Below, piece by piece: positions 1-30,981 of a stretch of DNA of 38,422 bases; the stretch's first letter is position 1, and every line of letters begins with the position of its first letter. The stretch lies in IMG/VR virus record IMGVR_UViG_3300030329_001399, positions 1-38,422 of that record; one strand, written 5' to 3'. The notes beneath the pieces were generated by a model. The model was given only the letters and a program-made list of their open reading frames with translations. It was not told the origin of the DNA and searched no databases. The stretch comes from a virus. The position numbers were made by a program, and so were the translations under genes.

Positions 1-1548
1 TTGGCCGGAATAAACAAGGTCGCAGACACGGTCAAGGTGACTCTTGGGCCGAAGGCTCGCAACGTTGTCCTTGAGCAACGTACTACATTCCCCATCATCC
101 TCAACGATGGTGTGACGATTGCAGGTGCAATCCACGACGAAGACCCCTTTGTCCAAATGGGTATCAGTCTGATACAACAAGTGGCCTCCGAAGCACAGGG
201 AGTAGCCGGTGACGGCACGACCACGGCAACGGTCATTGCACAACATTTAGCCAACAAGGGCTTTGAGATGGTGACAAAGGGCGCAGACCCAATCACTCTC
301 AAGAATCAGATTGACTCGGCAGTCGAGACAGTATGTGGTACTCTTGAAGATATGGCGACACCCGTGGAATACTTCGACGAAGCAAAGGGTTCATTGAGAG
401 CCATAGCGACAATCGCGGCCAACAATGACGATGAGTTGGGCCGTCTGATTTCCGAGGTATTCAAGGAAGTTGGGGAGAAAGGGATTGTTACTTTGGAAAA
501 CGGTAACACTACTGAAACGCACTATTATACAACCGAAGGAATTGAAATCGACAGTGGCTTCCTTGCCCCTATTATGATTACAAACTTCGATACAATGACG
601 TGTGAAATGGAGCGGCCTTTGATTCTACTTACTAACGAGGCTATTGACAATTTCAATGATTTGGTTCCGGCTCTTGAGTTATCGGTGCAAAGTAACCGAC
701 CACTGTTTATCATTGGAGAGGCGTTGAGGGGCAACACATTGCCCACTCTATTGGCTAACGTGGCACAAGGTCACGTCAAGGCTTGCTTCGTTAAGGCGAC
801 AGGTTGGGGAGAGGACCAAAATGATACTCTACGTGACCTCGCGGCCTTGACCGGAGGTAAGTTTTTCGACAAGACACTGTCAATGAATATCAAAGACGCC
901 GAGGAAGATGACTACGGTTCATGTTCAAGAATTAGCGTGTCGAGCAAAAAGACTACAATTATTGCTGAACACACACCTGAAGAGCGAGAAACCTTCGACC
1001 TATATTTGGAGACATTGGCGGCGGCGGCAGATATGGCTGACCACGAATGGACCGAAGCGAAAATCAAGGGTCGTATCGCCAAACTCACAGGTGGTGTGGC
1101 AATCATCCGAGTCGGTGGTAACACGCAGGTCGAAGTGGCTGAGAAAGTAGAGCGTCTTGACGACGCACTCAACGCTACGAAGGCGGCTATCGAATCCGGT
1201 TATGTTGTTGGCGGTGGGGCCGCGTTGGCCCTCGCCGTTGACCAATCTCCGTTCGATGAGGAAGATGACTTCCCCAACGACGGGCAGAGTCTTGTCATTG
1301 AGGCGTGTGAAATCCCCGCCCGCTTAATCGCGGAGAATGCGGGTCGTAATTACCTTCGCGCATACCAAACTGAAGACGGTGGGGTGCAAGGTCTAAACGC
1401 TAAGACGAATCTGTACTGTAACTTGATTGACGCGGGTGTCATTGACCCTGTGAAAGTAACGACATCGGCTCTTCGGTCGGCGGCTTCAATCGCAGGTCTA
1501 ATCTTGATGACAGAAGCGGCAGTACCACTAAGGGAGTTGACCGAGTAG
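1..1548 (+). CDS. groL: Group I (GroEL-type) chaperonin, 5' end cut by window edge
   Basis: Hsp60-family ATP-driven folding chaperonin, probably used to fold viral (or replace host) proteins in the cytoplasm. The visible 515 residues align in order with bacterial GroEL and not with the archaeal thermosome: the N-terminal VKVTLGPKARNVV block at about residues 12-24, the nucleotide-binding GDGTTT at 70-75 (D71 corresponds to the GroEL loop Asp), the DALNATKAA...GGG block from about residue 388, and the C-terminal VIDPVKVTTSALRSAASIAG. GroEL has about 20 residues before the point where this frame starts, so the first codon (TTG) is probably internal and the true start lies left of the window. 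The usual Gly-Gly-Met tail is absent; it ends LRELTE. The next gene follows after a promoter-like element. Confidence 0.93.
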   Translation: MAGINKVADTVKVTLGPKARNVVLEQRTTFPIILNDGVTIAGAIHDEDPFVQMGISLIQQVASEAQGVAGDGTTTATVIAQHLANKGFEMVTKGADPITLKNQIDSAVETVCGTLEDMATPVEYFDEAKGSLRAIATIAANNDDELGRLISEVFKEVGEKGIVTLENGNTTETHYYTTEGIEIDSGFLAPIMITNFDTMTCEMERPLILLTNEAIDNFNDLVPALELSVQSNRPLFIIGEALRGNTLPTLLANVAQGHVKACFVKATGWGEDQNDTLRDLAALTGGKFFDKTLSMNIKDAEEDDYGSCSRISVSSKKTTIIAEHTPEERETFDLYLETLAAAADMADHEWTEAKIKGRIAKLTGGVAIIRVGGNTQVEVAEKVERLDDALNATKAAIESGYVVGGGAALALAVDQSPFDEEDDFPNDGQSLVIEACEIPARLIAENAGRNYLRAYQTEDGGVQGLNAKTNLYCNLIDAGVIDPVKVTTSALRSAASIAGLILMTEAAVPLRELTE

Positions 1549-1571
1549 TTTATATCCTAAATGCTATCAGG
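1549..1571 (+). promoter_or_regulatory. Family A promoter: TATA box plus TGCTATCAGG
   Basis: TTTATAT at 1549-1555 directly follows the chaperonin stop, with TGCTATCAGG at 1562-1571. The TATA start lies 32 nt before the GTG at 1581, close to the spacing expected for an archaeal leaderless or short-leader transcript. The same two blocks at the same spacing recur at 2763 and 7914. Confidence 0.7.
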
Positions 1572-1580
1572 AGAGAATAG

Positions 1581-2525
1581 GTGAGCAATATGTCATGGGC
1601 ATCAGCGAAAACAGAAGAAGCCGAACAGGCAACGACGAAATACGACGCGGATTTTTACCGCAACCTGTACTCACAGGGCAAGACGGCACGGGGGGCATTG
1701 CGCCCTGTTCGGTGCGCTCTTGTGGGTAAGGAAAACACGACGAAGACAGGTACGGCATTGTCCCTTGCCCGCGCAGGTGGGAATAAGGGTACAATCCACA
1801 TCTTCGACTTCGACAGTAGTGCGGAGAACACCGTAGACTATGTATGTGGTGACGACGAAGACGTCATCGTACACCGGCTCTTCGATGAGTTGGATGAGTC
1901 CATCTTCCACGAAGACAACAGTACCAATTGGGTCGCCTTGATTGACAAGGTGTCATGGTTCGTTAGTATGGTTGCTGAAGATGTCAAGGAGACGGAAGTA
2001 GCGGCAATCATCTTCGACGGTGGTTCCACGTTTATGAAGTGGTGCGAGTTTGCTATGACAGACGCGCTACTGCGCCGTGGTGTTATCAAGGAAGAAGGCG
2101 AAGGCTTCAACCAAAAGGAATGGAGAGAGCGCAACAAATTATTCAAGAATACGATTCAGCGAGTCAACGCACTCCCTGTATCTCGTATCTTCTTTACCTT
2201 CCACTTGAAGGACGTCAAGTCCTATGTGGATTTGGGTAACGGCTCAAAGGGCCTGATGAAGATTGGCGAGAAGGTCGATTGGGTCGATGGTACTCAGCGT
2301 CTCTTCTCACAACAGATTTTCCTTCAGCGTTACATGAAAGAGGAAGATGCGGCGGCAGGTGTCAAGGGTGACGATAGCCTCGGACCTAACGATTGGGTTG
2401 TCAAAGGCACAATCGAGGAGATGAAGGGTCGTTACACTGAGCATTTGGGTGAGACTCACGACGTCATTGAAGTTAGAGGCGGAAAGGTTAAGTGGAACGG
2501 GTTCCCGTTCCTCAAATGGGACTGA
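1581..2525 (+). CDS. Sak4-like / RecA-fold P-loop ATPase (AAA_24 type)
   Basis: Probable phage-type recombination ATPase of 314 residues, of the kind that promotes single-strand annealing or strand exchange next to replication genes. A P-loop-like segment VGKENTTKTG lies at residues 48-57; it keeps the Lys-Thr pair (K55, T56) but has Thr where the classic Gly precedes Lys. A Walker B strand AAIIFDGG sits near residues 141-148 (D146). An RVNALPVSRIFFTFHLK segment near 205 resembles the sensor strand of RecA-fold proteins. Start is GTG 1581, with ATG 1590 as an alternative; GGAGAG at 1570-1575 can serve as ribosome-binding site. Family assignment is by motif order only; a RadA-like or other phage nucleotide-binding protein is possible. 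Confidence 0.7.
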   Translation: MSNMSWASAKTEEAEQATTKYDADFYRNLYSQGKTARGALRPVRCALVGKENTTKTGTALSLARAGGNKGTIHIFDFDSSAENTVDYVCGDDEDVIVHRLFDELDESIFHEDNSTNWVALIDKVSWFVSMVAEDVKETEVAAIIFDGGSTFMKWCEFAMTDALLRRGVIKEEGEGFNQKEWRERNKLFKNTIQRVNALPVSRIFFTFHLKDVKSYVDLGNGSKGLMKIGEKVDWVDGTQRLFSQQIFLQRYMKEEDAAAGVKGDDSLGPNDWVVKGTIEEMKGRYTEHLGETHDVIEVRGGKVKWNGFPFLKWD

Positions 2526-2527
2526 GT

Positions 2528-2686
2528 ATGCCGATTAACCCTGTGGGTAAAAAATGGCCCCCGTGGCCTAAATGCCCCAAGTGTGAGAATGGATATTTGT
2601 TATTGGTGGGTGAATACTTTGACTGTCATTCCTGTTGGTACAAGATTCTGTACAAAGAACACGGGTTTGGTGGCGGAAGATTTTAG
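2528..2686 (+). CDS. 52-residue zinc-ribbon mini-protein
   Basis: Short protein whose centre is a CPKC ... CHSC pair of knuckles, a typical four-Cys zinc ribbon. It is preceded by a Pro/Trp/Lys segment (KKWPPWPK) and ends in a Gly-rich tail. ATG 2528 follows the ATPase stop by 2 nt, so the two are probably translated from one transcript. Its stop codon TAG shares its last G (2686) with the first base of the tRNA. One of five such mini zinc proteins in this window; role unknown. Confidence 0.75.
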   Translation: MPINPVGKKWPPWPKCPKCENGYLLLVGEYFDCHSCWYKILYKEHGFGGGRF

Positions 2687-2757
2687 GGGGCGTAGTCTAA
2701 CCGGAAGGACACCGGCATGGTTGCCGGAGAATGGTGGTTCAAGTCCACCCGCCTCCA
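2686..2757 (+). tRNA. tRNA with 6-nt anticodon loop (possibly Thr, GGU)
   Basis: The cloverleaf folds by eye. Acceptor arm 2686-2692 pairs with 2750-2756 (7 pairs, one G-U). D arm GTCT/GGAC (one G-U) has loop AACCGGAA that keeps the conserved GG. Anticodon stem CCGGC/GCCGG is perfect. Variable region is AGAAT. T arm GGTGG/CCACC is perfect with loop TTCAAGT. Discriminator is A2757 and CCA is not encoded. The anticodon loop is only ATGGTT (2717-2722), six bases where seven are normal. If T2718 is U33, the anticodon is GGU (Thr). A lost base or a decayed gene is possible, but every stem is intact. Confidence 0.75.
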
Positions 2758-2762
2758 CTATC

Positions 2763-2785
2763 TTTATATCCAAAATGCTATGAGG
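2763..2785 (+). promoter_or_regulatory. Family A promoter: TATA box plus TGCTATGAGG
   Basis: TTTATAT at 2763-2769 and TGCTATGAGG at 2776-2785, between the tRNA and the clamp gene. The TATA box starts 30 nt before ATG 2793. The GAGGG inside the second block could also be a ribosome-binding site, although transcription starting about 25 nt downstream of TATA would leave it off the mRNA. Confidence 0.72.
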
Positions 2786-2792
2786 GATTAAC

Positions 2793-3629
2793 ATGGTGAA
2801 AGTAGATGGTACTGAATTGACGTGGCTCCTCGGAGTCACGCAACGCAAGCAAAACGTGAGTGGTAAAGCACACGCACAGGTGACTTCCTGTATGCTTGAT
2901 TGTTTGGCGGGTGAAATGTCGACGACAACACTTGTAAAGGATGGGTTGACGAGTTTATCAGATTTCACAATCAATTGTGAGGGCAAGGAAGGATGGACTT
3001 CTGTCGATTACCTCCGAATCCCTGTGGCTGACATTGATATTCTTCTTGGTGCGCTCAAGTACCACGGTAACACCGTGACCTTGACGTATGACAAGAAGAC
3101 GGAAAAGTTACTCATCAAGTCAGCGAAGAAGCAGACTACACTATCGACGAGCGCGAAGGCTCTCGCTTACAGTAACGCCCGCGACACTATCGAGGCATGG
3201 TTCAAGAAAAGCACGGACCTTGCGGCCAAGTTTACCAAGGAAGGTTACATCACAAACGATGGTGACATCCTTGAGCCCGCCCACACCTATGTCGTGGATG
3301 CGGTGGACTTGTTTGAAGCCCTGCGTTGCGACGCCATGAACGGGCAGAAACTTAACAGATACACATTCCTGATGAAGAAGGAGGGACTTGATGTCGTCGT
3401 TGGTGGCGAGATGAAGGGACTGACTTCTACAACATTGATTGAGGACGACTCGGAGGTCGAGTTAGAATGGGCCTTTGAAGGCGGACTTGACAATGTACTC
3501 GTTGGACTCAAGGGTGACGTGGTCCTTGACTTCTACGATTTCAGGGAACACAACCAAGGCGTCCGCATGGTCATGTGGTTAAATGATTGCACCTCATGGG
3601 TGTATCAGGCCGGTGTTCTTAAATACTAA
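2793..3629 (+). CDS. Probable DNA sliding clamp (PCNA-like)
   Basis: Candidate processivity clamp of 278 residues for the family B polymerase encoded just downstream. Length is close to PCNA (about 250). The segment ALKYHGNTVTLTYDKKTEKL at residues 87-106 resembles the strand-turn-strand pattern of clamp domains, and the protein alternates short beta strands and acidic turns throughout. A second domain appears to begin near 160 (AHTYVVDAVDLFEAL, helix with the expected spacing). I do not see a clean match to the PCNA interdomain loop, so the call rests on fold-like pattern, length and position. ATG 2793 has its own TATA-type promoter. Confidence 0.55.
   Translation: MVKVDGTELTWLLGVTQRKQNVSGKAHAQVTSCMLDCLAGEMSTTTLVKDGLTSLSDFTINCEGKEGWTSVDYLRIPVADIDILLGALKYHGNTVTLTYDKKTEKLLIKSAKKQTTLSTSAKALAYSNARDTIEAWFKKSTDLAAKFTKEGYITNDGDILEPAHTYVVDAVDLFEALRCDAMNGQKLNRYTFLMKKEGLDVVVGGEMKGLTSTTLIEDDSEVELEWAFEGGLDNVLVGLKGDVVLDFYDFREHNQGVRMVMWLNDCTSWVYQAGVLKY
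3619..3628 (+). promoter_or_regulatory. Family B promoter-like TTAAATA element
   Basis: TTAAATACTA overlaps the last codons of the clamp gene and lies 45 nt before ATG 3664. It matches the TTAA[A/G]TA core seen at 6772 and 9134 and, on the other strand, near 23311, 31989 and 36057, but lacks the TCAGA extension. Confidence 0.45.
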
Positions 3630-3663
3630 ATCGCGTCAACAATATAACACAGGAGCAATAGAA

Positions 3664-3954
3664 ATGAGTTTGAAGACTGTATTGAAAGAGGCCCCAACTG
3701 TGAGCGACATTGTCGCCGCGGGTGGGAGAATGGAAATAACGAAAGGACGTAGCACATACTTCATCGAAGTGAAGACGGGACGTGCAGACGAAGCAAAGTC
3801 GTACCGTGACTTTGATTGGCTACACGCACACTACGTTGAGGAGGACATGACTATGCAAGAGATTGCAGATATGTTCGGTGTCACACCAATGACTATCCAA
3901 TTGTGGCTCAACAAGCACGAAATCGAAACACGACCGCGTGGACGACGAGCATGA
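3664..3954 (+). CDS. Small helix-turn-helix DNA-binding protein
   Basis: 96-residue protein with a C-terminal HTH: residues about 56-90 read WLHAHYVEED, then MTMQEIADMFGVTP, then MTIQLWLNKHEI, the classic pattern of a resolvase/sigma-4-like HTH with IADMFGV as helix 2 and TIQLWL as the recognition helix. The basic tail (RPRGRRA) would contact DNA. ATG 3664 is chosen because AGGAG (3651-3655) lies 8 nt upstream; the longer frame would overlap the clamp gene. The stop overlaps the polymerase start as ATGA (3951-3954), so its synthesis is coupled to PolB. It could be a transcriptional regulator of this arm or an origin-binding accessory. Confidence 0.75.
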   Translation: MSLKTVLKEAPTVSDIVAAGGRMEITKGRSTYFIEVKTGRADEAKSYRDFDWLHAHYVEEDMTMQEIADMFGVTPMTIQLWLNKHEIETRPRGRRA

Positions 3955-6221
3955 TTGTTGACCGTGGCAAGGGCCGTAAGGTCGTTGTCCGCTATCGTGA
4001 CCCTGAAACACGGGAGCGACAGGTCGAGACGATTGGCAACCTCTATCCATATTTCTTCGTTGAAAAGACGGAGATGCCGATAGGAGATGTTGGTTGGGAT
4101 TTGGCCCGAAGCGAAGGTGTTATCAATGTCGAAGATAGAGGCGACGTTGGAGTTTATGGCGAAGAGTTACTCAAGGTGACCTGCTCATACCCCGAAGTCG
4201 TCAGCAAAGTCCGCGACGGATTCAATCAGACATGGGAAGCAAATATCCCGTGGCCTGTGCGAGTCCTCGCGGACGCCAACATGGAAATCCCTATGTATGA
4301 CCACCGCGTGTGGACTTTGGATGCTGAATGGTTGGTGGACAGTGGTCGCATCAACATGATTACGGTTCACGATTCCTATACGGACAACCTATACACATGG
4401 TTCGTTAATTCGGAAGATGACACGGACATGATGGTGTCCTCGATGGAATGTAAGAAGCACCCCGAAGGAGTGGGGACACTCAAGTTTGAGACGAATGCCA
4501 TGCAATGCAGGGATGAGAAAACCCTGCTGACTGCGTTCGCAAAGCACATGGATAAGCACGACCCTGATGTCCTGATGGGTTGGTATCTTGTCGGTGCTGA
4601 CATCAAGCAGATAGCGATGAGAATGAGGGCCAACAAATTGAATCCGGCTATCATGTCTCCGATGAGGAAGCACAGATATGACTACGGTGATTGGGACCAA
4701 CCAATCCCCGGACGGATTTGCTTTGACCTCATGCTTGGGTTCGTCAAACTGTGGACTGTCAAAAACGGACAGTTGCCGGGGAGAAAATTGGACGACGTGG
4801 CTTACGAAGTCCTCAAGGAACGGAAGGTCGAATTGGAGGATGGACACGATACATACTACACTGACCTAGCCACTTACATTGACTACAACAGACAAGACGT
4901 GAGGCTACTGCCTCGCCTCAATGATATGCTCAATTGTCTGAATCATTATCTTACTCTGATGCACTTGTGTAAGGTGGATTTCAGAGCCACGCCACACGTC
5001 ACGAAACTGACAACGGGATTATTGCTCAATGACGACGAGTGGGTGTACCGAATCCCAACAAAACCTCAGCACGAATACGAGCCTTATGATGGGGCCGACA
5101 TTATGGAGCCGAAAGCAGGTGTGTATCAGAACGTGGGCATCCTCGATATTAGGGCTATGTACCACAGTAACGTGGACCTTCACAACATATCTTGGGACAC
5201 GCTTGCTGAATCCGGCAAGGACTGTGGCAACGGCGTCCACTTCTCACAGGAAAAGAAGGGTACGTTGGGTCGAATGATGGGTAACTTGACCAATCTTCGT
5301 AACGAATACAAGGCGAAGAAGGCACAGGCTACTGACCCATACGAAATCACAAAGTATGACGCTATGCAATACGCTACGAAGTCTCTTGTTGCATCTCTAT
5401 ATGGGGTGTGCGGTGACTCCAAATACTCCCTTTACCACCCGAAGGTGGCATCCTCTATCACATTCACAAGCAGGGAGACTCTCGCTCGTCTCCGCAGACT
5501 ATCAGAGGAGCGCGGTGCGCGTGTCATCTATGGTCACACTGATTCCGTGTTCGTCGAATCAGAAAGTGTTGATATTCTCAAGGCTATCTGTGACGATATA
5601 AACGAAGTGATGCACCCTATCGTGGTTGAGTTTGAGAAGTACGCTGAGAGTATGTTCATCAAGGCGAAGAATCGTTACGCCGGAAAGGTCGTTTGGTCTG
5701 AAGGCGAGACGCTTGAGGAGCCGGATTACTATGTCAAGGGGATTGAGTTGAAACAGTCCCGCTTGCCACCTGCCATGAAGACCACGATGATGACAATTCT
5801 CCGTGGGATTCTCGATGGCAGAACACAGGACGAAGTGTCCGATTCACTCTCCAATCTTATCGAAGATGTAGTGAACGAGCGAGTGCCATTGGAGGACTTG
5901 ATGATTAAGGGTTCACTGTCAAGACCACTCGCTAAATACTCATCCATTTCAGGCACGGCCCAAGGCGCACAGTGGGCGAACAATCACTTGGATAAGCAGT
6001 ACGGGGAAGGCGATTACTTCCACTGTATATTGACTGAAGCCGGTGATTATGTGGCCTTCGACAGTCCCGATGAAATAGACGGTATGGTCGATGTGGGTTA
6101 CATGGAAATGGCAAAGCGATTCATCGTGAAGAAGGCACAGGACCTTTACGATGTGGTCGGTTGGGATTACACTCCGTTGGAAAATGCTCTCTATGGCAAG
6201 GGGGGAATGACATGGCTTTGA
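3951..6221 (+). CDS. polB: Family B DNA polymerase with 3'-5' proofreading
   Basis: Replicative polymerase of 756 residues. Exonuclease motifs: Exo I LDAEW with D124 and E126; Exo II around MGWYLVGAD with D217; Exo III Y312..D316 (YNRQD). Polymerase motifs: A, LDIRAMYHS with catalytic D399; B, ATKSLVASLYG with K477; C, YGHTDS at 527-532 with D531. Motif C has His where most family members have Asp (YGDTDS). At 756 residues it is compact, without a long C-terminal extension. ATG 3951 is preferred to an upstream in-frame start because it forms an ATGA overlap with the HTH gene stop. With the clamp, primase and nucleases it forms a self-contained replication module. Confidence 0.96.
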   Translation: MIVDRGKGRKVVVRYRDPETRERQVETIGNLYPYFFVEKTEMPIGDVGWDLARSEGVINVEDRGDVGVYGEELLKVTCSYPEVVSKVRDGFNQTWEANIPWPVRVLADANMEIPMYDHRVWTLDAEWLVDSGRINMITVHDSYTDNLYTWFVNSEDDTDMMVSSMECKKHPEGVGTLKFETNAMQCRDEKTLLTAFAKHMDKHDPDVLMGWYLVGADIKQIAMRMRANKLNPAIMSPMRKHRYDYGDWDQPIPGRICFDLMLGFVKLWTVKNGQLPGRKLDDVAYEVLKERKVELEDGHDTYYTDLATYIDYNRQDVRLLPRLNDMLNCLNHYLTLMHLCKVDFRATPHVTKLTTGLLLNDDEWVYRIPTKPQHEYEPYDGADIMEPKAGVYQNVGILDIRAMYHSNVDLHNISWDTLAESGKDCGNGVHFSQEKKGTLGRMMGNLTNLRNEYKAKKAQATDPYEITKYDAMQYATKSLVASLYGVCGDSKYSLYHPKVASSITFTSRETLARLRRLSEERGARVIYGHTDSVFVESESVDILKAICDDINEVMHPIVVEFEKYAESMFIKAKNRYAGKVVWSEGETLEEPDYYVKGIELKQSRLPPAMKTTMMTILRGILDGRTQDEVSDSLSNLIEDVVNERVPLEDLMIKGSLSRPLAKYSSISGTAQGAQWANNHLDKQYGEGDYFHCILTEAGDYVAFDSPDEIDGMVDVGYMEMAKRFIVKKAQDLYDVVGWDYTPLENALYGKGGMTWL

Positions 6222-6445
6222 GCAAACTTCAAGTGTCACGGAACGAATGTAGTAACATGAGCGAAGGCGAACACCTTAAATACGACTTCGTGTGCTACTA
6301 CTGTTTGAGGGCAAAGGAAGCAAGCAGTCTTAGCCATTTCGACCCATTGGATGTAGCAGATGAATACAGTGAGATTGTGCCGGTGTGTATAGATTGTGTG
6401 TATAGTATGAACCTCGGAGAACAGGAGATAGAAGAAGATGAGTGA
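6212..6445 (+). CDS. 77-residue zinc-ribbon protein
   Basis: ATG 6212 lies inside the last codons of polB (10-nt overlap) and is preceded by a strong G-rich ribosome-binding site (AGGGGGGAATG, 6199-6209). Two Cys pairs, CYYC and CIDC, are separated by about 30 residues that include SHFDPLDVADEY, and the tail is acidic (EQEIEEDE). The layout is that of a four-Cys zinc ribbon. Co-translated with polB, so a replication or transcription accessory is likely, but no specific family is recognised. Confidence 0.75.
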   Translation: MALSKLQVSRNECSNMSEGEHLKYDFVCYYCLRAKEASSLSHFDPLDVADEYSEIVPVCIDCVYSMNLGEQEIEEDE

Positions 6446-6767
6446 TATTTTGAGGCCGGGGACCGGCGGTAAAAGATTCAAGAAGCAAGCGACTAAAAAT
6501 CAATTGATAGAGCAACGATTGGAAGATTTGGAAACGAACATTGGTCAATTCGCCCGTGCGGTTGGCAATGATATGCAAAGATTTCAAGCCTTAATAATGG
6601 CTTTGATGAATGATTTGGGGCGTGTCGATATTTACGACTGCCCTGAATGCAAAGAAACCGGTATTTGGGTTCCGGTTCTTTCTTCATTGGACATAGAGCC
6701 CGATTGTCCCTCTTGTGGGGCTGAATTGGGCGAAGATGATTTGGCTTCAGATGAAGAAGAAGAGTGA
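6438..6767 (+). CDS. Coiled-coil plus zinc-ribbon acidic-tail protein
   Basis: 109 residues. Residues 20-60 are predicted helical with heptad-like hydrophobics (LIEQRLEDLETNIGQFARAV), followed by CPEC ... CPSC at about 69-92 and a strongly acidic end (DEEEE). ATG 6438 overlaps the previous stop by 8 nt (ATGAGTGA). The basic N-terminus (GGKRFKKQATK) opposed to the acidic C-terminus suggests a nucleic-acid-binding adaptor. No named family recognised. Confidence 0.72.
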   Translation: MSDILRPGTGGKRFKKQATKNQLIEQRLEDLETNIGQFARAVGNDMQRFQALIMALMNDLGRVDIYDCPECKETGIWVPVLSSLDIEPDCPSCGAELGEDDLASDEEEE

Positions 6768-6771
6768 ATGC

Positions 6772-6783
6772 TTAAGTATCAGA
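6772..6783 (+). promoter_or_regulatory. Family B promoter, TTAAGTATCAGA
   Basis: TTAAGTATCAGA begins five bases after the preceding stop codon and 39 nt before ATG 6811. It is identical over 12 bases to the minus-strand elements at 23307-23318 and 31989-32000. Confidence 0.6.
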
Positions 6784-6810
6784 ACAAGTGTAGCAGGTTT
6801 AGTGATTGAT

Positions 6811-7086
6811 ATGTCCCGTGTATTGGTTGTTGGAGACGAAAAGGCATTGGGCGCGGCTTTGAAGAAGTACGGCGCAGAAAACGTTTGGTGGGCGGTCCGT
6901 GAAGGACCTGAAACCCGACCCATTGCTATGCGAGTTGGACTCGCAACCCACCACTACGCGGGCCTCCTTGAAAAAGGCGAATGCTCTGAGGAAGACTACG
7001 ATGTAGTCCTCGGATTGGAGAAGCCCGAACCAAAGAAGGAATCCAAACCTGCCGCAACCAAGAAGGCGGCGAAGAAGGATGACTGA
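6811..7086 (+). CDS. 91-residue protein of unknown function with Lys/Ala tail
   Basis: Start ATG 6811 (MSRVLVVGDEKALGAALKKY) is preferred over the longer frame at 6715 because it follows the TTAAGTATCAGA element and avoids overlap with the preceding gene. The N-terminal strand-helix (RVLVVGDEKALGAAL) resembles the first beta-alpha unit of a Rossmann-like domain, but the rest is too short to support one. The C-terminus is a low-complexity Pro/Lys/Ala tail (KKESKPAATKKAAKKDD), as in proteins that bind DNA non-specifically. The stop overlaps the nuclease start by 8 nt. Confidence 0.65.
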   Translation: MSRVLVVGDEKALGAALKKYGAENVWWAVREGPETRPIAMRVGLATHHYAGLLEKGECSEEDYDVVLGLEKPEPKKESKPAATKKAAKKDD

Positions 7087-7912
7087 AAAGGATTTGGAAT
7101 ACTACAAGGAAAAGGGGCATTACAACCCCATCGAAGCGAAAAGATTGGGTGTACCGCTTAGGGTGTCTAAATCTTCATTTATGGGCTACTTATGGTGTCC
7201 CCGACAGTTTTGGTGGTCATACGTTCAAGGCATTCGTGGTCCGGCAACACCGGAAATGGAGCGAGGTACACTCGTCCACGATAGTCTTGACGAGGCATAC
7301 GACCTATGGGAGACGGGCTCATTGATTGACCACTTCCCTGAATCAGACGACCCTGCTTTCATGGCGTTGGCTGAGTTAGAGGAAGCGCGTCTCAAACTAT
7401 GGGGTGAAGACTTGTTCGCACCGGTGGAACACGAAGTCCACCACGAAGTCTATGACCCCGAACACAACATTGTCATGGTCGGTCGCATTGACGCCGTGTT
7501 CCGTCACCCCGATGGTGGTTTGGTCATCGGTGAATTGAAGACCGGCAACATGGGTGACTCCAAACTGAGTAAGACACGCAAAGAATTGTGCTTCTACAAG
7601 CGCATGGCTGAGTTGCTCGGTTGGGATGAAGTCACGCACTTCTATTACATGACTCCTGATTGTGACAACGGTGACCTTGTTCAGAAACTCCTTGGGAAGA
7701 AGAGGAACAGGCCCGAAGTATTCCTCGGCACAACACAAGGTTTATCAATTATGGAGCCTGTATCGAAACGTTCAATAACGGCGTTTGAGAAATCCTTAAG
7801 TGTCGCAATAGACGGTATGAAAACCCACGATTGGAGCATGAAGTGGAACGATTTCACTTGCCCCGTTTGGTGCGATTTCGCGGTATCGTGTGATGAGGAG
7901 AGACTCGGTTAG
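7079..7912 (+). CDS. Cas4/AddB-like PD-(D/E)XK nuclease with Fe-S cysteines
   Basis: 277-residue nuclease of the RecB/Cas4 superfamily. First cluster Cys C40 is in LWCPRQFWW; GTLVHDSLDEA supplies the motif I His region; metal ligands are D138 (GRIDAVF) and E152/K154 (GELKTGN); the final three cluster Cys are C261, C265 and C271 (CPVWC...SC). One N-terminal plus three C-terminal cysteines is the arrangement of [4Fe-4S] nucleases such as Cas4, AddB and Dna2. Probably resects or processes DNA ends during recombination-dependent replication. No cas genes are nearby, so a CRISPR adaptation role is not indicated. Confidence 0.9.
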   Translation: MTEKDLEYYKEKGHYNPIEAKRLGVPLRVSKSSFMGYLWCPRQFWWSYVQGIRGPATPEMERGTLVHDSLDEAYDLWETGSLIDHFPESDDPAFMALAELEEARLKLWGEDLFAPVEHEVHHEVYDPEHNIVMVGRIDAVFRHPDGGLVIGELKTGNMGDSKLSKTRKELCFYKRMAELLGWDEVTHFYYMTPDCDNGDLVQKLLGKKRNRPEVFLGTTQGLSIMEPVSKRSITAFEKSLSVAIDGMKTHDWSMKWNDFTCPVWCDFAVSCDEERLG

Positions 7913-7913
7913 G

Positions 7914-7936
7914 TTTATATGCAAAGTGCTATGAGG
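7914..7936 (+). promoter_or_regulatory. Family A promoter: TATA box plus TGCTATGAGG
   Basis: TTTATAT at 7914-7920 and TGCTATGAGG at 7927-7936, right after the nuclease stop and 30 nt before ATG 7944. Third copy of the element. Confidence 0.72.
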
Positions 7937-7943
7937 TGATGAT

Positions 7944-8099
7944 ATGGGAAAGTGGAATGTAGCGTGTAGTTGTGGTTGTTCTGAGTACGAGAACGAAAGA
8001 AATGTTTATGTGGTGACGAGTGATATGGACGACCCTCATGGTGAATTGACACTCATGGGGAATTGTGTTCAGTGCGGCGCACTAATCAGTCTTATTTGA
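7944..8099 (+). CDS. 51-residue zinc-ribbon mini-protein
   Basis: Begins MGKWNVACSCGC and contains a second knuckle CVQC near residue 41-44, separated by a hairpin-like region, which fits a zinc ribbon. GAGGTGAT sits 3-10 nt before the start. First gene after a family A promoter and 9 nt before the primase, so it may be made in the same transcript. Unknown function. Confidence 0.7.
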   Translation: MGKWNVACSCGCSEYENERNVYVVTSDMDDPHGELTLMGNCVQCGALISLI

Positions 8100-8108
8100 G
8101 GGGTTACT

Positions 8109-9137
8109 ATGCTCTCATTTCCGCGTGAAATCGGACTGAAACGTCAGTTGTGTAGTAGTGAAACACAGTACACGACTTACGTTGCCGACCTTGGGCCAAG
8201 AACGGCCTGTTACACGTCCTTGTATCACTATGAGGACCTACTTCCCAATCAGCGTCGTGTGGATTACAACACGGCAGTCATGGACAGAGCATGGTGGGAT
8301 TTCGACGCGGGTGTTCGTGGTGACATCAACGCCGTCAAAGACGATGTGTTCACGTTGATTAGTCGCCTCGATGGCGACGTCCGTGTGGTTGCCACAGGGC
8401 GTGGTTTTCACGTCCATCAAATGTTCGACAAGCCCGTACAGGGGTTTGAAGCCGAGCGCAATCTCGGTGAGTATTCACGCCACATGGCGAAGGGGCTCGA
8501 CACTCTCGATGGTGTGGCCCACATGAAGAAATTGACACGGATTCCCTCGACCTTCAACCCCAAGCGTTGGCGGTGGGCCGTGAACATCGACGTGTCTGCT
8601 TTCATGGCAGACCCCCATTCCTATCAGATTCCTGAGAAGCCCGACACCTCCCTTGATTGGGCAGACCCCTTCATTGGGGACCGTGTGTATCGTGGCTTCG
8701 ATTTTACAGGGTGGATAAGCACCAATCAGAGCCTCCTGAAGCCCGACCCTATCCTTACCGCATATCAGGCCGTAGAACTGCCTGTAACGGGCCTTGGAGA
8801 CGTCCCTATCCCCCCTTGTCTTGAGAACCACATCAGGCATGAGAATCCCGCTCACCACGTCCGCGTTGCATTGGCGCAACATCTGTACGAGAACCTTCGT
8901 ATGTTCGCGCCTGTGGAAGCGTTGACTACTGCACAGAAGGACCGCATTGAGGAACAAATCGTAACCTTTATGTCGAAGTTGGGGTGGCGCGATTACAGTG
9001 AGTATCACACGCGCAAGCACGTCAAGTCCTTGCTCAAGACTTCGCGCAGTCCGTCGTGTGCATGGTTCAAGACGCGGAATATGTGTTCGGGACCTTGTTG
9101 GCGGTATGACTACACCATTCCTATGGGTGACAATTAA
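8109..9137 (+). CDS. Archaeo-eukaryotic primase with PriL-like Fe-S C-terminus
   Basis: 342-residue primase for starting DNA synthesis. The catalytic half has WWDFDA (metal ligands D64 and D66), the ATGRGFHVH motif (H101) and the RIPSTFNPKRW segment expected for the third AEP motif. The C-terminal third resembles PriL: PPC at C237, then helices with HHVRVALAQHL, then C317, C326 and C330 (SCAW, NMC, GPC), four cysteines positioned to hold a 4Fe-4S cluster. A small- and large-subunit-like fusion in one chain is a known arrangement in viral and plasmid primases. GAGGGG lies 7 nt upstream of ATG 8109. Confidence 0.88.
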   Translation: MLSFPREIGLKRQLCSSETQYTTYVADLGPRTACYTSLYHYEDLLPNQRRVDYNTAVMDRAWWDFDAGVRGDINAVKDDVFTLISRLDGDVRVVATGRGFHVHQMFDKPVQGFEAERNLGEYSRHMAKGLDTLDGVAHMKKLTRIPSTFNPKRWRWAVNIDVSAFMADPHSYQIPEKPDTSLDWADPFIGDRVYRGFDFTGWISTNQSLLKPDPILTAYQAVELPVTGLGDVPIPPCLENHIRHENPAHHVRVALAQHLYENLRMFAPVEALTTAQKDRIEEQIVTFMSKLGWRDYSEYHTRKHVKSLLKTSRSPSCAWFKTRNMCSGPCWRYDYTIPMGDN

Positions 9138-9145
9138 ATATCAGA
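9134..9145 (+). promoter_or_regulatory. Family B promoter, TTAAATATCAGA
   Basis: TTAAATATCAGA overlaps the primase stop codon and starts 29 nt before ATG 9163, the spacing expected for a leaderless archaeal mRNA. Confidence 0.62.
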
Positions 9146-9162
9146 ACGTACCGGTGGACTAT

Positions 9163-9411
9163 ATGACAACTCTATCATTACAGGAGGCTTTGAAGATGCC
9201 AAGGGTCAGGGATGAAAACGAAATCCACATGATGCTTAGGGAGGCGTTGCGGCTCAAGGGTGAGTGGAAGCGTTGGCTTGAAGACCCTGAATGCAAAGAG
9301 GACAGAAAGGCATTCGCAGAAGCCATTCGTAACTACAATGCCCTCAAAGGTGTCGTCCAAAGTCTACAATGGGTGCTACATCACCCTGCCGTGGAAGACC
9401 CTCTTTGGTGA
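9163..9411 (+). CDS. 82-residue helical protein, unknown
   Basis: Mostly alpha-helical, charged protein (SLQEALKMPRVRDENE... LKGEWKRWLEDPECKEDRKAF). No motif recognised. ATG 9163 is chosen for its spacing to the upstream TTAAATATCAGA; the longer frame from 8998 would run antisense-free through the primase gene and is unlikely. Its C-terminus (HHPAVEDPLW) ends 32 nt before the XPF-like nuclease start. Confidence 0.6.
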   Translation: MTTLSLQEALKMPRVRDENEIHMMLREALRLKGEWKRWLEDPECKEDRKAFAEAIRNYNALKGVVQSLQWVLHHPAVEDPLW

Positions 9412-9414
9412 GCC

Positions 9415-9420
9415 TTAAGC
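9415..9420 (+). promoter_or_regulatory. Weak TATA-like element, TTAAGC
   Basis: TTAAGC follows the preceding stop codon and is 29 nt from ATG 9444. It shares the TTAAG core of family B but lacks the rest, so it is listed with low confidence. Confidence 0.3.
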
Positions 9421-9443
9421 ACTACATACTTTCAGCCCATATC

Positions 9444-10187
9444 ATGGTCCTGTATGTGGACGACCGAGAAAACGACGTCCTCATCCACAAACTATATGCT
9501 CGTATGGGCAATCGTGACTTCGGACCCAACGGACAGGTTCAGGTAAAACGTCTGCAATCTGCTGATTACATCATCGGTGATTGGGGAATCGAAGCAAAGG
9601 AAATCAACGACCTGTACCACTCTATCCTCGGCCACGGTCGCTCACGGACAATCGTGGGACAGTTACAAGACCTTGAAGAGAGTTTTCAGACCCCAATGTT
9701 GGTCGTATATGGTAATGAATTGAAGCCGTTCATCCCCGGTAAAAAAATGACTCGCAAACTTTACGCAATCGAAAAGAGACGAATGGAACAAACAATCCTC
9801 AATTTCAAAATCAGTTTCCAATTGAGATTTCCCAATATCGCTTTCATGCAGTTTGACACGATGGATGAGTTTGCTCATTTCCTTGCCGTCAACCACACGC
9901 AAAAGACCCACGTCGGCGTGAGTCAACAGACCCACAATGCCAAAAAAACCGAGAAGATTCACCCACAGGTTCTCGCTCTATCCGCACTCCCCGGAATCAC
10001 TGAAGAACAAGCAGAAGATATGCTTGAGCGTATCGGTGGTCTTCGCAACATTCTCCGCTTACGCACTCGCCAAAAAGACCTCATGGAGACAAAAGGTGTC
10101 GGCAGGTCACGCGCTCGTAAAATCCTATCGCTTAGAGAGGATTACAAGTCCGATATATCTGTTATTGATGAAGAAGACCCAGAGTAA
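9444..10187 (+). CDS. XPF/ERCC4-type nuclease with helix-hairpin-helix tail
   Basis: 247-residue structure-specific endonuclease of the XPF/Mus81/Hef family, which cuts branched DNA such as forks and flaps. The N-terminus reads VLYVDDREND; the core motif appears as SADY...IEAKEINDLYHSI, with E50, K52 and D56 matching the E, K and D of the family's ERKxxxD but Ala in place of Arg. Two HhH motifs follow (LPGITEEQAEDMLERIGG near 180-200 and TKGVGRSRARKIL near 215-228). ATG 9444 is preferred over the longer frame at 9369, which overlaps the preceding gene; TTAAG at 9415 lies 29 nt upstream. Its last 46 bases overlap the end of the minus-strand tail hub gene. Confidence 0.87.
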   Translation: MVLYVDDRENDVLIHKLYARMGNRDFGPNGQVQVKRLQSADYIIGDWGIEAKEINDLYHSILGHGRSRTIVGQLQDLEESFQTPMLVVYGNELKPFIPGKKMTRKLYAIEKRRMEQTILNFKISFQLRFPNIAFMQFDTMDEFAHFLAVNHTQKTHVGVSQQTHNAKKTEKIHPQVLALSALPGITEEQAEDMLERIGGLRNILRLRTRQKDLMETKGVGRSRARKILSLREDYKSDISVIDEEDPE

Positions 10188-30038: not shown

Positions 30039-30950
30039 TCACGAACGCACACCCGTCAACTTGTAAATCCTATTGCTTGTGTTAGCCGAAGCACCATCTT
30101 GGTGTTCGTGGACAACAGTACCCCAATACGAAGTTAGAAGCCATGAGTAACCGACACCTTCGATTCGGGTCAATTCTGTTTCCATGAAGCCCTCTCCATT
30201 GTATTGGAAGTATTCAGCAGTCTCTCCGCCGGGAATCATAAGTAGTGCATCGTTACCGATTGCACTTGATGTACCGTAGTCACGGGTGTACTTGATGCTG
30301 ATTTTACCGATTCGTGCCATGTGGTCGCTTAGTGATTCAACAACGTTTCCGTAAAGTTGTGTGTTCAACATTGCACTTCGCTTGTCAGCAGGTAGAACAA
30401 GAGCAAGGCCCTCGTCACCGCTTACACGGGCGTTAGCAAAGATAGCGTCCATTGCGGTTAGCAAGTCGCTCTCTTCGTCAGCAGTTGCGCTACCGAATGT
30501 TGCGGTTGCGGCTCCTGATTGACCTGCACCTGCGTAAACTGCGGACAAAACGTTGTTGTCGATTGCATCTGCGCGAGCGCGGACAATTGCCATCTGTTGG
30601 CGGTCAAGGTTTTCCCATGACTCACCGCGTAGGCGTACTGAATCGAGGAATACACATCGACCCTGTCCCTTCTGCAATTGGCATAGGTAGGATTCGCTTC
30701 CAACCTTGGTTGGGTCGACAACTGCGTTGTCATCAATTGGGTAGGTGAATGTTCCATTAACACCGGTGTACCACTTGTAGGTCATCCACGGAACGGTGCG
30801 AACACCGACGAGGTCTGTTGCGATAGCAATGGTGGTTGATTGTAGTTGGACGAAGTCACGGAGCGTCTGCTCAAGGACTGCGTCACCGGTTCCGAAAGGA
30901 CCGTCAACCGCTTGCACGTTCATAATTTGTTCTAATGATTGATTGCTCAT
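30039..30950 (-). CDS. Major capsid protein (HK97 fold)
   Basis: 303 residues, placed between the scaffold/decoration genes and the head completion genes. The N-arm helix MSNQSLEQIMNVQAVDG leads into E-loop-like strands (VPWMTYKWYTGVNGTFTYPI). The spine-helix region RGESWENLDRQQMAIVRARADAIDNN is followed by the P- and A-domain sequence (GLALVLPADKRSAMLNTQLY, IGNDALLMIPGGETAEYF). Start ATG 30950 with GGAAGTGAG upstream is preferred over the in-frame ATG 30971. The ending WLLTSYWGTVVHEHQDG... RIYKLTG is typical of the closing beta strands. Identification by position, size and pattern. Confidence 0.83.
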   Translation of the reverse strand: MSNQSLEQIMNVQAVDGPFGTGDAVLEQTLRDFVQLQSTTIAIATDLVGVRTVPWMTYKWYTGVNGTFTYPIDDNAVVDPTKVGSESYLCQLQKGQGRCVFLDSVRLRGESWENLDRQQMAIVRARADAIDNNVLSAVYAGAGQSGAATATFGSATADEESDLLTAMDAIFANARVSGDEGLALVLPADKRSAMLNTQLYGNVVESLSDHMARIGKISIKYTRDYGTSSAIGNDALLMIPGGETAEYFQYNGEGFMETELTRIEGVGYSWLLTSYWGTVVHEHQDGASANTSNRIYKLTGVRS

Positions 30951-30981
30951 TTTCTCACTTCCTATTTTCATTTATTCAGTA

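What the first reader, a model, noticed from the sequence alone, without database searches (positions are those of the whole stretch)
1549..7936. A two-part promoter element repeated three times, unlike a plain archaeal TATA box
TTTATAT followed by [C/G]C[A/T]AA[A/G], then TGCTAT[C/G]AGG occurs at 1549, 2763 and 7914, always right before a gene and with 30, 30 or 32 nt from the T of TATA to the start codon. TATA plus about 25 nt places transcription start at the start codon (leaderless). The conserved TGCTAT..AGG block is therefore in a region that ordinary archaeal promoters do not conserve. It could be an operator for a viral factor (the HTH protein at 3664 is a candidate) or an initiator. 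I saw none on the minus strand.
Basis: partly seen in the sequence, partly recalled or inferred. Interest (0 to 1): 0.72.

Follow-up and report, generated by a model that had tools for sequence, protein, structure and literature searches.

The report
Genome-specific viral promoter code beside TATA
In marine tailed viruses that probably infect Marine Group II archaea, the switches in front of DNA-replication genes carry a short sequence just after the TATA box that is shared within each virus genome but differs between virus lineages, as expected if each lineage's own (still unidentified) factor reads it.

Summary
In detail: three TTTATAT-N6-TGCTAT-N-AGG elements, only on the + strand, against 0.01 expected. 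Close relatives keep them and have a fourth. They sit in front of replication genes: Sak4-like, sliding clamp (fold confirmed), zinc ribbon/primase and, in relatives, an OB-fold protein. About 26 magrovirus-like contigs carry TATA cassettes at orthologous genes, but the block after TATA differs between lineages. It is shared between genes of one genome (85% identity over +6..+16) and not between the same gene of different genomes (47%; different gene 48%). The shared stretch is limited to -4..-1 and about +6..+16 around TTTATA. The 'AGG' is a family-wide G at +21/+22, partly Shine-Dalgarno. The block is absent or at chance level in Poseidoniales genomes. The HTH protein is an unlikely reader: a 68-kb relative with four cassettes lacks it. 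Best reading: a replication-gene promoter class read by a co-evolving, probably viral, factor not yet identified. Precedents: HF2 repeats, SIRV GTC, Sulfolobales virus early promoters.

The parts
1549..1554 (+). Element 1 TATA box TTTATA, upstream of the Sak4-like gene, right after the chaperonin stop codon
   Evidence: alignment with G001/G002
1555..1567 (+). Element 1 lineage-specific block TCCTAAATGCTAT (offsets +6..+18; the family-wide within-genome excess covers about +6..+16)
   Evidence: family map
1570..1571 (+). Element 1 GG at +21/+22, a family-wide promoter-like feature
1579..1579 (+). Predicted transcription start (+30, A preceded by T), giving an 11-nt leader with GGTGA before ATG 1590
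   Evidence: inferred from the TTTATA-ATG peak and +29 T/+30 A in leadered cassettes
1590..2525 (+). Sak4-like ATPase gene, start conserved as M-S/T-W
   Evidence: PHROG 124, E 2e-4; start conservation
2763..2768 (+). Element 2 TATA box TTTATA, upstream of the sliding clamp and 4 nt after a tRNA-like gene
2769..2781 (+). Element 2 lineage-specific block TCCAAAATGCTAT
2784..2785 (+). Element 2 GG at +21/+22
2793..3629 (+). PCNA-like sliding clamp; ATG is 30 nt from TTTATA (leaderless)
   Evidence: AlphaFold model pLDDT 90; Foldseek hits are sliding clamps, E about 1e-10
7914..7919 (+). Element 3 TATA box TTTATA
7920..7932 (+). Element 3 lineage-specific block TGCAAAGTGCTAT (G001: TGCAAAATGCTGT)
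7935..7936 (+). Element 3 GG at +21/+22, here within GAGGTGAT, also a good Shine-Dalgarno
   Evidence: sequence
7944..8099 (+). 51-aa CxC...CxxC zinc-ribbon-like protein, upstream of the primase-like gene; ATG is 30 nt from TTTATA
   Evidence: function inferred from sequence
8109..9137 (+). Primase-like protein (DFD and GRGFHVH motifs), probably in the same transcript as 7944-8099
   Evidence: function inferred from motifs, not from a family match
3664..3954 (+).

Best explanation
These elements are the promoter class of the virus's replication genes. The host basal machinery (TBP/TFB) binds TTTATA and starts RNA about 30 nt after its first T: at the start codon for the clamp and zinc-ribbon genes, and 11 nt before it for the Sak4-like gene. 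The bases beside TATA (about -4..-1 and +6..+16, here including TGCTAT) are a recognition site for a sequence-specific trans factor, most likely virus-encoded, that switches these promoters as a group. Because site and factor co-evolve, all copies in one genome change together and differ from those of other lineages. Shown: the element, its repetition, its confinement to the replication arm, its within-genome sharing and between-genome divergence, its near-absence from candidate host genomes. Inferred: TSS position, a trans factor, its viral origin, the temporal class. Unknown: which protein it is and whether it activates or represses (position downstream of TATA slightly favours repression or licensing of initiation).
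For: Three exact copies against 0.01 expected; same sites and a fourth in relatives G001/G002. Ten lineages: elt4 (OB-fold protein) and sak4 promoter blocks match 9.8/12 within a genome vs 5.56/12 between genomes, permutation p=1e-5. Same genome/different gene 0.85, different genome/same gene 0.47, different genome/different gene 0.48: genome, not gene, sets the block. 26 contigs, 74 cassettes: excess within-genome identity at -4..-1 and about +6..+16 only (z 6.0, 10.6, 7.7; flanks z -0.5 to 0.4), so not copied DNA or base composition. All exact copies in four 68-74 kb contigs lie on the replication strand, expected 0-0.04. TTTATA-to-ATG peaks at 29-30 (86 of 264). Early-region promoters of the same genomes carry other surroundings (G001 TTTATAGGGTAACAAG; G183 ACAAAAAAACCTTATAA). 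The window block gives no match in 170 Poseidoniaceae genomes; 21 one-mismatch and no exact matches in 292 Poseidoniales, not above control; another lineage's block 1/292.
Against: No cognate factor found. The HTH protein fails; a conserved winged-HTH/zinc-finger protein (G001:58161-58553 and relatives) has a nearly constant recognition helix across lineages with different blocks. No TFB over cut-off in 29 contigs. No transcript data. The host is assumed from gene content and literature, not shown. +11 is mostly A in all classes, so part of the block may be basal promoter. The permutation test uses 10 lineages that are themselves related (this makes it conservative).
Confidence: 0.66

Rival explanations
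1. The block is a host-lineage core-promoter preference: each virus lineage infects a different host whose TFB paralogue or RNA polymerase prefers a particular BRE and downstream sequence, so no viral factor is needed.
For: The covarying positions flank TATA on both sides (-4..-1 and +6..+16), where TFB contacts DNA; TFB multiplicity is known in archaea (general knowledge).
Against: The window block is absent or at chance level in candidate host genomes, as is a second lineage's block. The same viruses use other surroundings at early promoters. Host upstream regions show little TTTATA. Limits: host not proven, block searches are strict.
Confidence: 0.2
2. One reading: the HTH protein encoded at 3664-3954 binds TGCTAT.AGG as an operator.
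For: It is a small HTH protein beside the clamp gene and conserved in the window lineage.
Against: G187 (68.5 kb) has four exact cassettes and no copy; in L056/L068/L069/L076 the syntenic protein lacks the HTH half; between G180 and L033 (different block) it is 63% identical, between G180 and L038 (same block) 56%.
Confidence: 0.07
3. The conserved downstream part is a Shine-Dalgarno/translation signal, not a promoter element.
For: GAGG/GAGGTGAT lies 8-14 nt before ATG in elements 2 and 3; candidate hosts use TGAGGTGA at that distance; cassettes with ATG at 30 have somewhat more SD-like matches than shuffles.
Against: It could explain only AGG, not TGCTAT; G at +21/+22 is also present where ATG is 36 nt or more away (0.53/0.80, n=15); the leaderless spacing would leave the SD out of the mRNA except in read-through transcripts.
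Confidence: 0.04
4. The copies are similar only because of recent duplication or gene conversion, without regulatory function.
For: Short shared stretches in one genome can arise by recombination (general knowledge).
Against: Flanks outside -4..+16 show no excess similarity; copies sit at conserved, unrelated single-copy genes; similar cassettes recur in many lineages with different sequence.
Confidence: 0.03

Closest known systems
Halovirus HF2 intergenic repeats (class I and II), Haloferacalesvirus (PMC8707807)
   Same: Archaeal tailed virus; repeated promoter cassettes of distinct classes for gene modules; TATA about 26 nt before the TSS; conserved sequence outside TATA; class-specific viral factors proposed
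   Different: HF2 repeats are 58 and 29 bp, well conserved across the genus and tested in reporters; here the unit is about 20 bp around TATA, its sequence is replaced between lineages while staying uniform within a genome, and transcripts are mostly predicted leaderless
SIRV1/SIRV2 GTC element downstream of TATA (Kessler et al. 2004, as cited in PMC5569661)
   Same: Virus-specific conserved element between TATA and TSS in an archaeal virus
   Different: Only three bases, in the majority of SIRV promoters; here a longer block confined to replication genes and lineage-specific
Early (anti-defence) gene regulatory sequences of Sulfolobales viruses, Aca8 type (PMC11065993)
   Same: Sequences around TATA/BRE shared by many promoters of one virus and varying between viruses, read as different viral regulators
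   Different: Those are early genes with a strong constant BRE and, in some, inverted repeats; here the promoters are of conserved replication genes, allowing an orthologue-by-orthologue test and a base-resolved map

Membership tests
Archaeal TATA-dependent (TBP/TFB) promoter | TATA box at a fixed distance before the transcript start | tested here: met
   TTTATA-to-ATG peak at 29-30 in virus contigs, absent for control hexamers; the TSS itself not measured
Archaeal TATA-dependent (TBP/TFB) promoter | Purine-rich BRE just upstream of TATA | tested here: inconclusive
   -4..-1 is shared within genomes but not purine-rich in all (e.g. cacc, gtag)
HF2-type intergenic repeat promoters | Several near-identical intergenic promoter copies per genome, class tied to a gene module | tested here: met
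   4-6 copies, replication strand only, in four long contigs
HF2-type intergenic repeat promoters | Sequence homology to the class I (58 bp) or class II (29 bp) repeats | not tested
   HF2 repeats were not aligned to these elements
HF2-type intergenic repeat promoters | Measured promoter activity | not testable with these tools
   needs a reporter assay
SIRV GTC element | GTC just downstream of TATA | tested here: not met
   No GTC in the window blocks and not a shared feature of the family blocks
Magrovirales / magrovirus (Poseidoniales tailed viruses) | Tailed virus with its own replisome (PolB, clamp, clamp loader, primase) and GroEL, replication and structural genes in opposite orientation | tested here: met
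   description in PMC10768690
Magrovirales / magrovirus (Poseidoniales tailed viruses) | Sequence relationship of MCP/PolB to named magroviruses | not testable with these tools
   ON649702, OR863078 and PP497040 are not held; the protein at 30039-30971 (likely MCP) has no match in 'phages'; best PolB match is a halovirus at 24%
Virus-encoded TFB directing its own promoters | TFB gene in the virus | tested here: not met
   PF00382 over cut-off in 0 of 29 contigs; some contigs incomplete

The most novel reading that the evidence does not exclude
Magrovirus-like viruses encode a fast-evolving, sequence-specific initiation factor, outside known families, that recognises DNA on both sides of TATA and partners the host TBP/RNA polymerase, so each virus lineage has a private promoter code for its replication genes.
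Probability: 0.25. Interest if true: 0.85.

Novelty: new variant of a known kind. Interest (0 to 1): 0.6.

Why it matters
Magroviruses are abundant, uncultured viruses of some of the commonest surface-ocean archaea, and no promoter study of them was found in the held literature. The covarying block gives a defined 20-bp bait for the unknown regulator, lets replication, early and other genes be assigned to regulatory classes from sequence alone, and is a natural experiment in co-evolution of a site and its reader across many lineages. The early-class cassettes found alongside could be used, as in Sulfolobales viruses, to pick out anti-defence gene candidates.

Tried and rejected
HTH protein 3664 as cognate factor: rejected as a general explanation. 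Viral TFB: none found. Winged-HTH/zinc-finger protein as specificity factor: conserved in all lineages seen, but its recognition helix is nearly constant where blocks differ. Block as general host promoter: not seen. SD as explanation of AGG: only partial. Replication-module protein with unusual divergence tracking the block: none. Primase search of genome contigs for misbinned relatives: no relative found; a 16S probe pattern was then used to reach Poseidoniales genomes. Pfam/PHROG scans of conserved unknown proteins of G187: no regulator found. Sequence search of PDB with clamp and elt4 profiles: nothing for the clamp, only weak hits for elt4; fold search gave sliding clamp and weak OB-fold matches. 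Named magrovirus records: not held.
Full report
WHAT IS THERE. TGCTATSAGG alone is not enriched, so the unit is TATA plus a fixed-distance block. The window is a fragment of a tailed virus: + strand genes 1-10187 are chaperonin, Sak4-like ATPase, sliding clamp, HTH protein, family B polymerase, PD-(D/E)XK nuclease, primase-like protein and ERCC4 nuclease; the rest is a structural module on the other strand with terminase, portal and tape measure.

RELATIVES. An exact-pattern scan of IMG/VR found two near relatives, G001 (73.8 kb) and G002 (11.4 kb) (polymerase about 90% identical). G001 keeps all three elements; G002, whose contig ends before the third site, keeps the first two. Both have a fourth, TTTATAGCCAAACTGCTAT, in front of a gene that follows the clamp loader. 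In these copies the core TTTATA-N7-TGCT[AG]T holds, but AGG does not always (TTGG, GCGG). The Sak4-like gene starts at ATG 1590 by conservation of M-S/T-W, so element 1 is 41 nt, not 32, from its start codon. A primase alignment then brought in 80 loci, most of them more distant. In L023 (68%) the corresponding block reads AAATACT in two promoters, where the window lineage has AAATGCT, AAGTGCT or AACTGCT (inspection). In L024 (63%) TGCTAT is kept before the zinc-ribbon gene.

THE MAIN RESULT. Magrovirus-like contigs carry TATA cassettes at orthologous genes, but with a different block in each lineage: TTTATAACCGTAATCA (L063), TTTATATGCGGATAG (L031, L038), TTTATAAGCAAAGAAGTA (L033), TTTATATGTGTAAT (L069, L076), TTTATATGRACATGG (L095, L099). 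In ten dereplicated lineages the elt4 and sak4 promoters of one genome match at 9.8 of 12 positions (+6..+17), against 5.56 between genomes (p=1e-5). Identity over +6..+16 is 0.85 for same genome/different gene, 0.47 for different genome/same gene and 0.48 for different genome/different gene. A base-by-base map over 74 cassettes from 26 contigs puts the within-genome excess at -4..-1 and about +6..+16 and nowhere else. Flanks are unrelated, which speaks against copied DNA and base composition. In four 68-74 kb contigs all exact copies (4, 4, 6 and 4) are on the replication strand.

START SITE. TTTATA-to-ATG distances peak sharply at 29-30 in virus contigs (86 of 264), not for control hexamers. 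Cassettes with more distant start codons keep T/A at +29/+30 and G at +21/+22, so transcription probably starts near +30 in both kinds: leaderless for elements 2 and 3, an 11-nt leader for element 1. It can double as a Shine-Dalgarno in read-through messages, since candidate hosts use TGAGGTGA.

HOST OR VIRUS. The window block is not found in 170 Poseidoniaceae genomes (up to one mismatch). A looser form gave 21 one-mismatch hits, none exact, in 292 Poseidoniales genomes, not above the reversed-pattern control. A second lineage's block gave one hit in 292. Early-region promoters of the same viruses have other surroundings: G001 TTTATAG[GT]GTAACAA, about ten copies; G183 ACAAAAAAACCTTATAA, five copies. 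The basal machinery therefore does not seem to demand this block, and a promoter-class-specific factor is the simplest reading. It is not the HTH protein at 3664 in general: G187 (68.5 kb, four exact cassettes) has none, four contigs of another lineage kept the gene without its HTH half, and its divergence runs against the block. No TFB was found. A winged-HTH/zinc-finger protein just upstream of the clamp loader is present wherever that region is visible, but its recognition helix hardly varies. The factor stays unidentified.

COMPARISON WITH THE KNOWN. It works like HF2 intergenic-repeat promoters (PMC8707807), the SIRV GTC element (PMC5569661), and Sulfolobales virus early promoters, whose sequence around TATA/BRE differs between viruses (PMC11065993). 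It differs in being tied to conserved replication genes, in position and width, and in the demonstrated concerted change. Assignment of the virus to Magrovirales rests on gene content (PMC10768690); named magrovirus genomes were not available for comparison.

LIMITS. No transcript or binding data; host assumed; many contigs incomplete; the number of independent lineages is moderate; primase, zinc-ribbon and OB-fold assignments are inferred or weak.

Noticed in passing
window 2686-2758 (+): tRNA-like gene directly before element 2; ARAGORN cannot assign an anticodon and the fold has a 6-bp stem with a 4-nt loop in its place. G001/G002 have an intact tRNA-Ala(TGC) at the same spot.
   Followed up: partly
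window 6772 and 9134 (+), 23318 and 32000 (-); L023:8662: Another recurring TATA cassette, TTAA[AG]TATCAGA, before other genes on both strands; partly kept in G001 and L023.
   Followed up: partly
G001:43436-51815 (L019): About ten copies of an early-region cassette (AAGG/AACC)TTTATAG[GT]GTAACAA before small genes, with Shine-Dalgarno leaders in most; includes an ArdC-like anti-restriction gene at 45024.
   Followed up: partly
G183:47539-51264 (L197): Five copies of ACAAAAAAACCTTATAA before small ORFs: an early promoter class conserved upstream of TATA instead; these ORFs are candidate anti-defence genes.
   Followed up: no
G001:1-3962 versus 65248-71473: The two ends of this contig carry diverged versions (about 33-55% identical) of the same replication genes, suggesting a chimeric assembly or two related viruses.
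   Followed up: no
G001:58161-58553, G187:53211-53609, G183:32619-33014, G180:49740-50135, G178:15199-15675: Conserved winged-HTH plus C-terminal zinc-finger protein just upstream of the clamp loader, no Pfam or PHROG match; a likely viral transcription regulator.
   Followed up: partly
window 36066 (-), G001:30452 (-): TTAAATACCACTTGCTTTATC, a conserved TATA-like cassette 29 nt before the portal gene, probably a structural-gene promoter.
   Followed up: no
L022:415-1623 (G001:59809-61017): The gene behind the fourth element encodes a protein whose model has weak Foldseek matches to SSB/RPA/POT1 OB folds (best E 1e-4), suggesting a viral ssDNA-binding protein.
   Followed up: partly
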